Positions 200 to 4,470 of a DNA stretch of 10,214 nt are shown piece by piece. Within the stretch, counting starts at the first letter, position 1. Every line of letters starts with the position of its first letter. Source of the DNA: an uncultured archaeon (lineage in GTDB: Archaea > Halobacteriota > Methanosarcinia > Methanotrichales > Methanotrichaceae); NCBI GenBank assembly GCA_902385025.1, contig CABMDX010000048.1, positions 1 through 10,214 on the forward strand, written 5' to 3'. The notes under the pieces were generated by a model. That model had not been told where the DNA came from. It did no database searches and was given only the letters and a program-made list of their open reading frames with translations. The position numbers were made by a program, and so were the translations under genes.

Positions 200-3100
200 C
201 TATGCGGCTTTATCTATGCCGATCCGGACACATACGCCTTCGATATCCCAGTCCTTGATCAGCTTGCCCTGCAGCTTCAGGCCCAGCCCGAGCTGGAAGT
301 CTGCAGCCCGGACCTCGCTTGCTATGTGCTCCTTCTTTTGCGCTGCCAGGTCCAAAATGGGCTTGCTCTCAATGTCTACCACTGCCCGGATCTGATCTTC
401 CACGCGCAGATCCAGCTCTTTTCTCATGTCCTGAATGCGTCTGATGATCTCGCGGGCATATCCTTCCGCCTCCAGCTCAGGAGTAAGTGTGGTGTCCACA
501 TAGACGAATCCTCTGGAGAACTCTGCTGCGGAGAGGTTCTCGGGCGGCAGCTCCTTGAAGAGCACCATTTCCGGCGTTATCCTGTATTCCTTTCCACCGT
601 GCTTGAGAATTGCCTCTCTCTGACTTATCTCTCCCTGATCGAACATTCTCTTGACCTCAAACGGGTCAGCAGCAGCGATGGCCTCCACCACAGCCCTTGC
701 CTCGCCCTTGAACACCGGTCCGATCTTCTTATGAACAGGCGCCATTTCCAGGTCCATCTTTGGTTTTTGGCCGGGCGAGAGCACTGTTATCTTCTTGGAA
801 TTTGTCTGGCCGCGAAGCACGCTGTCCAGATTATCCAGGTCCACCATGTCCCTGGAAGGCGCAATGACTATCTCAGAGACAGGCCAGCGCAGCTTGCGGC
901 CTCCTTTCTGGCGGGCATTGGACGCGGCCTCTGAGACCTCTCTGACCAGGAGCATGCTGGCTTCCAGCCTTTTATCGATCCAATCCTTGTCGGCCCTGGG
1001 CCAGTCGCACATGTGCACCGATGGCAGCGCCTTCTCATCCAGTCCCCTTACCAGATTCTGGTAAATTGTCTCTGAGAGGAACGGCGTGAAGGGTGCCATG
1101 ATCTTAGAGAGCTTCACCAGAACCTCGTAGAGCGTGGCATAGGCAGCCAGCTTATCGGGATCGTCCTGTTCTATCCAGGTGCGAGGCCGAACGAGCTGTA
1201 TATACCAGCGAGAGAGGTCTTCCAGGATGAAATCAGATATCAAGCGAATTATGCGGTGAAGCAGGTATTGCTCCATGCAATCCGTCACTGCCTCTGTAAG
1301 GCTGTTTATGCGGGACAAGATCCAGCGATCCTCGGGGCGCAGGCTGCTCTTGTACTGGGAAAGATCAGCCTTGCTGGCATCGAAGTTATCCAGAACCATG
1401 TAGGGCAGGGCAAAACGATAGGCATTCCAGAAGATATTGAGCATGCGGCCCGTGTTCTCCACTGCATCCCAGGAGAAGTGCAGGTCCTCCCAGGGCGCAT
1501 TGGCTCCCAGCACATAAGCTCGAAGGATATCGGCTCCGAACTTGGCTACAACCTCTTCCGGCTGCACGATGTTTCCGATGCTCTTGGACATCTTGCGGCC
1601 CTGATCGTCCAGAGTGAAACCGTGCATAAGAACGCTCTTGTAGGGCGCTCTTCCAAATGAGACCATGGATGCGCCGAGCTGCGAATAGAACCAGCCGCGC
1701 GTTTGATCATGGCCCTCGGTGATGAAGTCCGCAGGCCACCAGTCATTGAACTCGGACTCGTGGCTTGGGAAGCGCAGAGTTGCCCAGGAGGCTACGGCGC
1801 TGTCAAACCAGACATCAAAGACATCAGGCGAGCGCTTCATTTTTTCCCCGCATGGGCAGTCCAAAACGATTGAGTCCACATCAGGCCGGTGCAGGTCGGC
1901 AAGCTTCTGGCCGCTTCTATGTTCCAGCTCCTCTGCAGTGCCGATGACTTCTATTTTGCCGCAGGCGGGACATGTCCAGATGGGCAGGGGAATTCCCCAG
2001 TATCTCTGCCGGGAGATGCACCAGTCGCGGGCATTTCGTATCCAGTCAGAGAAGCGTGCAGATCCTGCCCATTCAGGGTACCACGTAACACGGGAAACCT
2101 CATCGAGCATCTTGTCCCGAAGGTCTGAGATTCTGAGGAACCACTGGCTCGTGGCGATGAAGATGATGGGCGTCTTGCAGCGCCAGCAGTGCCCATAGCG
2201 ATGGGCGAGCCTGCCCTGGGCTACAAGCTTTCCGCGCTCCTCCAAATCGGCGATGACGTCTCCGTCCGCCTCCTTGACATACAGGCCCACATACTTCTCT
2301 CCAGCCTCGGCAGTGTAGTGCCCGTCCTCGCCCACCGGGCAGAAGATCTTCAGATGATGGTCGAGCCCCAGCTCATAATCCTCAAGACCGTGGCCTGGAG
2401 CGATATGAACGCAGCCAGTGTTCTCTGCCGTGACAAAGTCGGCAGCATAAACGCCATGCTCGATGTCCTTTTGCCCCGGCACCAGATCCAGCAGAGGATG
2501 GCTGTATTTCAGCTCCTGCATTTCCTTGGCAGAGAGAGTTCCAAGAAGCTCATAATCCTTGTAGCGGCCCACCTTCAGAACCGGCTCGACGAGATCCGAG
2601 GCCATAATCAGAGTATCCACCTGTCCGTCCTTCCAGGCCCGCACCTTGGAATACTCGAAGGTGGGGTTCACGGCCACGGCCACATTGGCAGGAATGGTCC
2701 AGGGAGTGGTGGTCCAGATCACGATATAGGTATTCTCCTCGCCGAGTACCTGGAATTTAACATAGATGGAATAATCGGTCTCATCACAGTACTAAACCTC
2801 GGAATCGGAAATGGCCGTCTGGCAGCGGGGGCACCAGTTTACGACACGCAGTCCCCTCTCCAGGAGGTTATTCTCATGAGCCTTCTTCAGAGTCCACCAG
2901 GCAGCCTCAAGATACTCATTCTTGAGTGTCATGTAGGGGTCATCCCAGTCGAGCCAGGCGCCCAGGATCTTGAACTGGCGTGTCATGTCATCTTTTTGGC
3001 GCAGCGCGAACTCCTTGCACCTCTGAATGAACTTATCGACTCCATAGGCCTCGATATACTTCTTGCTGCGAAATCCAAACGACTCCTCGACCTTGACCTC

Positions 3101-3376
3101 GATTGGTAGGCCATGCATGTCCCAGCCGGCTCTGTCCTTGACGGCAAAGCCGTTCATGGATTTGTAGCGGAGCACCGAGTCCTTGATCACCTTGTTCCAG
3201 GCAGTGCCCAGGTGAATGCGGCCTGTGGTGTAGGGCGGCCCGTCTACGAAGAAGAACTTCTTGCCGCCAACTCTCAATTCCCGAACCTTGCGGTAGGTTT
3301 GGGCCCTCTCCCACAGAATTCTGACCTGGCTTTCCAGATCCTCTGCATTATACTGTCCAGCCACCTCGGTGATCAC
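200..3376 (-). CDS. ileS: isoleucyl-tRNA synthetase (IleRS) interrupted by one in-frame amber codon
   Basis: Class I synthetase that charges tRNA-Ile with isoleucine in the cytoplasm and edits mischarged valine. The frame spans 1058 residues plus stop, normal for archaeal IleRS. In order: the HIGH-type motif HLGT (55-58); a CxxC pair (CPRC, 182-185) whose partner CWRC follows the editing insert (397-400), matching the first zinc site; the CP1 editing domain from [11 protein letters not shown] (221-231) through [10 protein letters not shown] (328-337); the second zinc site CPAC/CPC (469-472, 507-509); KMSKS (595-599); and the anticodon-binding C-terminus. The GTG start at 3376 is chosen because GGAGG lies 7 bases upstream and a TATA box sits at 3420-3427; the ATG at 3418-3416 would precede the expected transcript start. 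Codon 195 is TAG (2794-2792) between SDSEV and YCDETDY, with no frameshift on either side. An annotation pipeline may call this a pseudogene or two ORFs (3376-2792 and 2722-200). Identity is certain; whether full-length protein is made is not. Confidence 0.93.
2792..2794 (-). other. ileS: in-frame UAG codon 195 of ileS
   Basis: The minus strand reads GAG GTT TAG TAC TGT GAT GAG. E. coli IleRS reads AEVEYYDKTS at this place, so the expected residue is glutamate. GAG to TAG needs one change, base 2794 being a on the plus strand instead of c. The codon sits between the first zinc CxxC and the start of the CP1 editing insert. No obvious stem-loop follows it. Confidence 0.9.
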
Positions 3377-3383
3377 TGACAAT

Positions 3384-3388
3384 CCTCC
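3384..3388 (-). promoter_or_regulatory. ribosome binding site that fixes the ileS start
   Basis: GGAGG on the minus strand lies 7 bases before the GTG at 3376-3374. It decides for this GTG over the upstream ATG (3418) and over the TTG only one base after the motif. Confidence 0.7.
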
Positions 3389-3498: not shown

Positions 3499-4470
3499 AT
3501 GAAAGGAGGGTTGCTTATCAAAGAGGAGATCTGGATCGAGAAGTACCGTCCCGAGAAGCTGGATGACATCGTGGGCCAGGACGAGATCATTCGCCGTCTC
3601 AAGTCCTATGTCAAGACCCGAAACCTACAGCATCTGCTGTTCTCCGGACCTCCGGGGGTTGGAAAGACAGCTGCTTCCATATCCATCGTTAAAGAGGTCT
3701 TCGGCGAGACATGGAAGAACAACTTCATTGAGCTGAACGCCAGCGACGAGCGTGGTATCGACATTATTCGCCACAAGGTAAAGGACTTCGCCCGCATGGC
3801 GCCTCTGGGAGAGGCAGACTTCAAGGTCATATTTTTGGATGAGGCCGATGCCCTGACCAATGATGCCCAAAGCGCTCTGCGACGCACTATGGAGCGCTAT
3901 TCGGCCACCACCAGGTTCATCCTCTCCTGCAATTACTCGTCAAAGATCATCGAGCCCATTCAGTCACGCTGCGCAGTCTATCGATTCAAACCCCTGTCAT
4001 CCGAGGCCGTGGCCAAAAGGGTCAAATTCATTGCCTCACAGGAGATGCTGCAGGTCTCGGATGCAGGTCTGTCTGCCATACAGTATGTTGCCGGCGGAGA
4101 TATGCGAAAGGCCATCAACTCCCTGCAGGCCGCGGCCCTGCTTGGTGACAAGGTGGACGAAGAGACAATTTACCAGATCACCTCCACCGCCAAGCCTGAG
4201 GAGATTCGCAATTTTATAAAAACGGCGCTCTCAGGAGACTTCGTGGGAGCACGAGCGGTCTTGGATGATTTCCTGCTCTCCAAGGGCCTTTCGGGACAGG
4301 ATGTGGTAGTTCAGATTCACCGGTCCATGATGGATCTGGATATTCCGGACAAGGAGAAGATCAAGCTCATCGACCGCATAGGAGAAATCGATTTTCGCAT
4401 GACTGAAGGCGCAAATGAGAGAATTCAGCTCGAAGCTCTGCTGGCCTATTTTGCCCTGAGCAAGGCCTAA
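3499..4470 (+). CDS. rfcS: replication factor C small subunit (clamp loader)
   Basis: AAA+ ATPase subunit that, with the large subunit, opens PCNA and loads it on primed DNA during replication and repair. The 323-residue length is normal for archaeal RfcS. Visible motifs: the N-terminal box IWIEKYRPEKLDDIVGQ (11-27); Walker A GPPGVGKT (50-57); Walker B VIFLDEAD (110-117); sensor-1 region ILSCNYSSKI (141-150); the SRC arginine-finger motif (156-158); and sensor-2 GGDMRKAINSLQ further on. The C-terminal third is the helical collar that holds the subunits together. The start is uncertain by a few codons: after the ATG at 3499 comes a strong AAAGGAGGG, which normally precedes a start codon. The TTG at 3511 and even the ATC at 3517 are alternatives, and MIKEEIWIEKYRP-like N-termini are typical of the family. 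It is divergent from ileS and convergent with the kinase gene, so probably monocistronic. Confidence 0.96.
   Translation: MKGGLLIKEEIWIEKYRPEKLDDIVGQDEIIRRLKSYVKTRNLQHLLFSGPPGVGKTAASISIVKEVFGETWKNNFIELNASDERGIDIIRHKVKDFARMAPLGEADFKVIFLDEADALTNDAQSALRRTMERYSATTRFILSCNYSSKIIEPIQSRCAVYRFKPLSSEAVAKRVKFIASQEMLQVSDAGLSAIQYVAGGDMRKAINSLQAAALLGDKVDEETIYQITSTAKPEEIRNFIKTALSGDFVGARAVLDDFLLSKGLSGQDVVVQIHRSMMDLDIPDKEKIKLIDRIGEIDFRMTEGANERIQLEALLAYFALSKA

What the first reader, a model, noticed from the sequence alone, without database searches (positions are those of the whole stretch)
2792..2794. Amber codon inside the essential ileS gene with both flanks intact
IleRS is indispensable and a second ileS is rarely present. 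Here the frame is perfect from a GTG start with its own TATA box and GGAGG through every motif (HLGT, both zinc sites, CP1, KMSKS) to a normal C-terminus, except for one TAG at codon 195. E. coli IleRS has Glu there, one base away (GAG). Possible explanations: a sequencing or assembly error; a recent nonsense mutation covered by a second ileS; UAG read as sense (pyrrolysine, known in Methanosarcinales, or another suppressor tRNA); or a split enzyme. A sense reading would put an unusual residue at the entrance to the editing domain of a synthetase.
Basis: partly seen in the sequence, partly recalled or inferred. Interest (0 to 1): 0.8.

Follow-up and report, generated by a model that had tools for sequence, protein, structure and literature searches.

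The report
Probable sequencing error in methanogen ileS
A stop codon that seems to cut an essential archaeal enzyme gene in two is most likely a base-calling or DNA-damage error in a draft environmental genome, so it is probably an ordinary artefact and not a sign of a changed genetic code.

Summary
In detail: an in-frame TAG at 2792-2794 (minus strand) interrupts an otherwise intact ileS. The window is one whole contig of a 78.6%-complete draft genome in 390 contigs, of the genus Methanothrix.

The recoding readings are not supported. No pyrrolysyl-tRNA synthetase passes the cut-off in this genome or 24 congeners, while 16 of 16 outgroup genomes have one. TAG ends 55 of 175 long coding frames here and 34 of 120 in a complete relative. 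No recovered tRNA reads UAG, though recovery is partial.

The evidence favours error. The stop lies in a 59-bp patch with three other changes at positions invariant in 20 relatives; all four alter the protein and are G>T or C>A. In 559 kb of the same genome, gatB (TAG), an alpha-glucan phosphorylase (TAG) and carB (TGA) are each cut once, each time by a first-position G>T. So stops are not only TAG and share one substitution class.

Best explanation: an uncorrected G>T-type error. Reads were not available, so a real nonsense mutation is not excluded. Interest low.

The parts
200..3376 (-). ileS reading frame from the likely GTG start to its terminal TAG (202-200)
3384..3388 (-). GGAGG, likely ribosome-binding site of ileS
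   Evidence: read from the sequence printed; function inferred
2792..2794 (-). internal in-frame TAG (codon 195 from GTG, 209 from ATG); Glu in 90 of 92 relatives; private first-position G>T
2751..2809 (-). 59-bp patch holding four private protein-altering G>T/C>A changes (2809, 2794, 2786, 2751) at positions invariant in 20 relatives
3058..3058 (-). fifth private G>T in ileS (Asp in 88 of 90 relatives, Tyr here)
200..2791 (-). ileS downstream of the stop; open frame, 80-85% identical to 17 congeners' copies that cover nearly all of it
4324..4332 (+). rfcS codons 276-278: two private protein-altering G>T/C>A changes seven bases apart or less; possibly a second patch

Best explanation
The TAG is an uncorrected G>T-type error (oxidised guanine in the library, or poor base calls) in a thinly supported stretch of a fragmented draft genome; the living organism most likely has a sense codon, probably Glu, at this site and an ordinary IleRS. 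Shown: the stop sits in a local cluster of private changes of one substitution class, and the same class makes premature stops of two kinds (TAG and TGA) in other conserved genes of the same assembly. Inferred: that reads would not support the base, that coverage is thin there, and that the cause is chemistry or base calling and not mutation in the cells.
For: Four private G>T/C>A changes, all protein-altering, within 59 bp of ileS at columns invariant in 20 relatives; 4 of 5 falling within 59 bp has p about 1e-4 under random placement, a test framed after seeing the data. gatB and alpha-glucan phosphorylase (TAG) and carB (TGA) are each cut by a first-position G>T; in gatB a private C>A lies 33 bp away and in carB a private G>T 70 bp away, both at residues conserved in 11 of 11 relatives. 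Pooled over six genes, stops are 4 of 102 private changes here and 0 of 840 in relatives. With the relatives' spectrum about 0.20 of nonsense changes would be G>T, so 4 of 4 has p about 0.002. No PylS; TAG in normal use as terminator.
Against: No read coverage could be seen. Four of the six pooled genes were chosen because they are cut; without the four stops the excess of G>T/C>A among non-synonymous changes is 10 of 46 against 70 of 494, p = 0.19, and among synonymous changes there is none (9 of 52 against 67 of 346). Four of any 16 private changes within 59 bp has p = 0.033 only. The glgP stop has no such neighbour. Five departures from 605 invariant residues is not many by itself: 20 relatives show 0 to 24. 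At least two short stretches of this genome hold internal stops that are not of the G>T class by their aligned residue (L232:13176 TAA against Gln, L219:1792 TGA against Arg).
Confidence: 0.78

Rival explanations
1. A real, recent nonsense mutation in the sampled cells: a minor or dying strain, or one covered by a second ileS missing from the assembly, perhaps with a raised GC-to-TA mutation rate.
For: A single base separates the stop from Glu; the rest of the frame is intact; the genome is 78.6% complete, so a second copy could be missing. A GC-to-TA mutator would also give one substitution class.
Against: It must hit ileS, gatB and carB alike, and does not explain four protein-altering changes in 59 bp. 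No second ileS was found, nor two full-length copies in any of the 40 relatives.
Confidence: 0.15
2. UAG is read as a residue here, by pyrrolysine or by another suppressor tRNA such as a Glu tRNA with a CUA anticodon.
For: Three of the four interruptions confirmed by homology are TAG, at sites where relatives have Glu (ileS, gatB) or Glu/Asp (phosphorylase). About half of the tRNAs of a genome may be missing from this one, so a suppressor could be too (the expected number is recalled).
Against: PylS over cut-off in 0 of 25 Methanothrix against 16 of 16 outgroup genomes. TAG ends 55 of 175 long frames. carB is cut by TGA. Missense changes of the same class lie beside the ileS stop. No CUA anticodon among recovered tRNAs.
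Confidence: 0.04
3. A split IleRS made as two polypeptides.
For: Both sides of the stop are open and coding-like.
Against: The break falls inside the tRNA-synt_1 match, the next listed start is 24 codons after the stop (GTG at 2722), and no ileS match in 40 relatives has an internal stop.
Confidence: 0.02

Closest known systems
Methanothrix isoleucyl-tRNA synthetase (ileS)
   Same: Same gene, same order of domains, 80-85% identical over the part after the stop in 17 congeners.
   Different: An internal TAG and three neighbouring residues not seen in 20 close relatives.
Amber codons read as pyrrolysine in methanogens (PMC4153887, passages seen)
   Same: In-frame TAG in a conserved archaeal gene; the paper predicts such codons in conserved genes of 'Ca. 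Methanomethylophilus alvus'.
   Different: That organism has the pyl genes and, as I read the passage, ends only 1.6% of genes with amber; here no PylS and 55 of 175 long frames end with TAG.
G>T artefacts from oxidised guanine in sequencing libraries
   Same: One substitution class, G>T or C>A, in private changes that harm the protein.
   Different: Usually described at read level; here only an assembly was available. Source seen: abstract opening of PMC11666792 on 8-oxoG causing G>T; Costello et al. 2013 seen only as a citation.

Membership tests
Pyrrolysine-encoding archaea | pyrrolysyl-tRNA synthetase (TIGR02367) | tested here: not met
   Best match 20.2 bits against a cut-off of 178.15; 0 of 25 Methanothrix, 16 of 16 outgroup genomes over the cut-off. 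The own genome is 78.6% complete.
Pyrrolysine-encoding archaea | tRNA with CUA anticodon | tested here: inconclusive
   24 tRNA matches, none CUA; the set is incomplete and tRNA-Pyl is unusual in shape (recalled), so it could be missed.
Pyrrolysine-encoding archaea | pylB, pylC, pylD | not tested
   Not searched.
UAG recoded as a sense codon | UAG rare as terminator | tested here: not met
   55 of 175 long coding frames end with TAG, against 34 of 120 in 400 kb of G004.
UAG recoded as a sense codon | interruptions are TAG only | tested here: not met
   carB is cut by TGA at a Gly/Ala site.
Sequencing or DNA-damage error | one substitution class, clustered, recurring in unrelated genes of the assembly | tested here: met
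   ileS patch; gatB, phosphorylase, carB. Pooled excess without the stops is not significant (p = 0.19).
Sequencing or DNA-damage error | weak or mixed read support at the base | not testable with these tools
   No reads or coverage available.
Pseudogene | several lesions spread over the gene | tested here: not met
   One stop and no frameshift in 1072 codons; private changes at conserved residues are concentrated near the stop.

The most novel reading that the evidence does not exclude
This Methanothrix lineage carries a tRNA-Glu with a CUA anticodon that reads UAG, at least in part, as glutamate, so that amber codons at Glu sites in ileS, gatB and an alpha-glucan phosphorylase are tolerated; the TGA in carB would then be an unrelated error.
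Probability: 0.03. Interest if true: 0.8.

Novelty: not a real feature. Interest (0 to 1): 0.1.

Why it matters
If the stop were real it would mean recoding, or loss of an essential enzyme, in a group with no known recoding system. As it stands the case is a caution: before recoding is proposed from a draft genome, a lone amber codon in an essential gene should be checked for neighbouring changes of the same substitution class and for interrupted genes elsewhere in the same assembly.

Tried and rejected
Second ileS: besides this gene the own genome gives only two weak matches, 34% and 31% identical; that they are valine- and leucine-type synthetases is inferred. Suppressor tRNA: three RF00005 matches for which ARAGORN without introns gave no gene, or another gene, were run with introns: tRNA-Lys, one called tRNA-Ala that I doubt, tRNA-Trp; none reads UAG. 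Intact copy of the same species elsewhere: not seen; of 7998 scored proteins (a capped set) 120 were listed, best identity 86% over nearly the whole length and 87% over 78% of it; three were read.

Relatives are not free of faults. In one search no ileS match has an internal stop, but in G003 and G016 ileS is spread over two frames of one contig (probably frameshifts), in G014 over two contigs, and G020 has no ileS match at all.

Census of in-frame stops in 101 own contigs: 19 candidates at a strict setting, 94 at a looser one, mostly shadow frames or neighbouring genes by my reading. Seventeen of the 94, and ileS, were scanned with Pfam; a domain above its curated cut-off spans the stop only in carB, gatB and ileS. 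The phosphorylase rests on alignment to nine relatives. A histidine kinase on C83 (L219:4852, TAG) is cut between PAS and HisKA; its former residue was not determined and it is not counted. A comparison with 400 kb of G004 aligned 8,962 residues in 32 stretches and met 15 stops. Two are gatB and the phosphorylase; I looked again at ten of the other thirteen: seven lie at the very ends of the aligned stretch, L157:432 (TAA against Ser) may be a gene boundary, and L232:13176 (TAA against Gln, 80 residues) and L219:1792 (TGA against Arg, 43 residues) are internal, not of the G>T class, and were not followed. The remaining three, all in L149, lie in an alignment gap.

The table of nonsense paths omits some codons (TGT among them), a minor effect.

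Papers: 'Methanothrix' with 'pyrrolysine', 22 papers, 15 listed, none read; five terms on amber and pyrrolysine, 38 papers, 15 listed; 'pyrrolysine', 'Methanosaeta', 'TAG', 11 listed; 'Methanothrix' with 'amber suppress', none; premature stops in metagenome-assembled genomes, none; oxidation artefacts, 54 papers, 12 listed. Passages were seen of PMC4153887, PMC9723677 (nothing of use) and PMC5994075 (citations only).

Full report
Observation. The minus strand of the window encodes one isoleucyl-tRNA synthetase, from GTG 3376 (or ATG 3418) to a terminal TAG at 202-200, interrupted once by TAG at 2794-2792. Read with X at the stop it is a normal IleRS by Pfam. The part after the stop is 80-85% identical to the 17 congeners' copies that cover nearly all of it. 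The window is the whole contig C48 of a draft genome of 2,278,623 bases in 390 contigs, 78.6% complete. The nearest named records are Methanothrix (Methanosaeta) metagenome genomes. In 92 distinct relatives out of 109 loci the codon is Glu in 90, Val in 1, Asp in 1.

Second copy and recoding. No second ileS was found. PylS (TIGR02367) reaches 20.2 bits here against a cut-off of 178.15. Over 41 genomes it passes the cut-off in 16 of 16 outgroup genomes of the class and in 0 of 25 Methanothrix, own genome included. pylB, pylC and pylD were not searched. Of 24 tRNA matches none has a CUA anticodon; as the genome is incomplete, and as contigs under 3,000 bases read N among those fetched (12 of 101), this is weak by itself. 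TAG ends 55 of 175 long coding frames in 559,220 readable bases of this genome and 34 of 120 in 400 kb of the complete relative G004, so UAG looks like a working terminator. If UAG were sense, ileS would gain only seven residues at its own end, so the end of this one gene says little.

The local patch. Twenty close relatives' ileS genes give 605 columns with a single amino acid; the window departs at five, codons 121, 204, 211, 223 and 525. Five is not many: left out in turn, the relatives depart at 0 to 24 columns. What is odd is where and how. By nucleotide, the window has 16 private changes at invariant columns. Five are of the G>T/C>A class, all protein-altering, at codons 121, 204, 209 (the stop), 211 and 223; four lie within 59 bp, window 2751-2809. 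Codon 204 is Ala in 92 of 92 relatives. Codons 211 and 223 are Trp and Pro in 29 of 29 of the genus and family set but vary beyond it. Random placement puts 4 of 5 within 59 bp about once in ten thousand trials, though the test was framed after seeing the data; any 4 of all 16 has p = 0.033. In the 20 relatives the listed G>T/C>A changes show no such group.

Other genes of the same assembly. In 101 contigs I looked for in-frame stops with coding-like sequence on both sides and checked likely ones by Pfam or with relatives. Three further conserved genes are cut once: gatB on C90 (L226:4622, TAG; Glu in 11 of 11 relatives), an alpha-glucan phosphorylase on C69 (L205:7716, TAG; 5 Glu and 4 Asp) and carB on C21 (L158:1453, TGA; 9 Gly and 2 Ala). 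Each differs from every aligned relative by a first-position G>T. In gatB a private C>A at a Leu conserved in 11 of 11 lies 33 bp away; in carB a private G>T at a Met conserved in 11 of 11 lies 70 bp away; the phosphorylase has no such neighbour. No match listed has an internal stop. Two short stretches with internal stops of other classes were met and not followed (L232:13176, L219:1792).

Pooled numbers over ileS, rfcS, gatB, gatA, carB and the phosphorylase, four of them chosen because they are cut: stops, 4 of 102 private changes here and 0 of 840 in relatives; non-synonymous changes of the G>T/C>A class, 14 of 50 against 70 of 494 (p = 0.021); synonymous, 9 of 52 against 67 of 346 (p = 0.85). 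Without the four stops the first contrast is 10 of 46 against 70 of 494 (p = 0.19). So the weight rests on the stops and on the ileS patch and not on a general excess. With the relatives' own spectrum about one nonsense change in five would be G>T, so four of four has p about 0.002; given G>T alone, three TAG, one TGA and no TAA is ordinary (p = 0.18), because GAG is much commoner than GAA or GGA in this genome.

Judgement. A sense reading of UAG does not explain the TGA in carB, the missense changes beside the ileS stop, or the ordinary use of TAG as terminator. A real mutation does not explain the clustering and would have to cut ileS, gatB and carB in one living lineage. An error of the G>T class in thinly covered stretches would explain these points. 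Oxidised guanine is a known source of that class (abstract opening of PMC11666792; Costello et al. 2013 seen only as a citation); poor base calls would do as well. Reads were not available, so this is an inference, held at 0.78.

Noticed in passing
L226:4622-4624 (own contig C90): gatB cut by an in-frame TAG where 11 of 11 relatives have Glu; first-position G>T.
   Followed up: yes
L158:1453-1455 (own contig C21): carB cut by an in-frame TGA where relatives have Gly (9) or Ala (2); first-position G>T.
   Followed up: yes
L205:7714-7716 (own contig C69): Alpha-glucan phosphorylase cut by an in-frame TAG where relatives have Glu (5) or Asp (4); first-position G>T.
   Followed up: yes
L219:4850-4852 (own contig C83): Histidine kinase frame cut by TAG between its PAS and HisKA domains; the former residue was not determined.
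   Followed up: partly
L232:13176 and L219:1792 (own contigs C96, C83): Short internal stops, TAA against Gln and TGA against Arg of G004, in stretches of 80 and 43 residues; not of the G>T class by the aligned residue.
   Followed up: no
window 4324-4332: rfcS codons 276 and 278 carry private protein-altering G>T and C>A changes close together; in rfcS 3 of 7 private non-synonymous changes are of this class against 1 of 11 in relatives.
   Followed up: partly
G009:C77:29123-30616: In a congener, a weaker match to the query (32% identical, probably a valyl-tRNA synthetase) is listed with one internal TAG.
   Followed up: no
G003:C182 and G016:C230: In two other draft congeners ileS is spread over two frames of one contig, probably frameshift errors.
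   Followed up: no
own genome, contigs under 3,000 bases: 12 of 101 contigs held read wholly N, all 2,533-2,962 bases long, so genes on them could not be examined.
   Followed up: no
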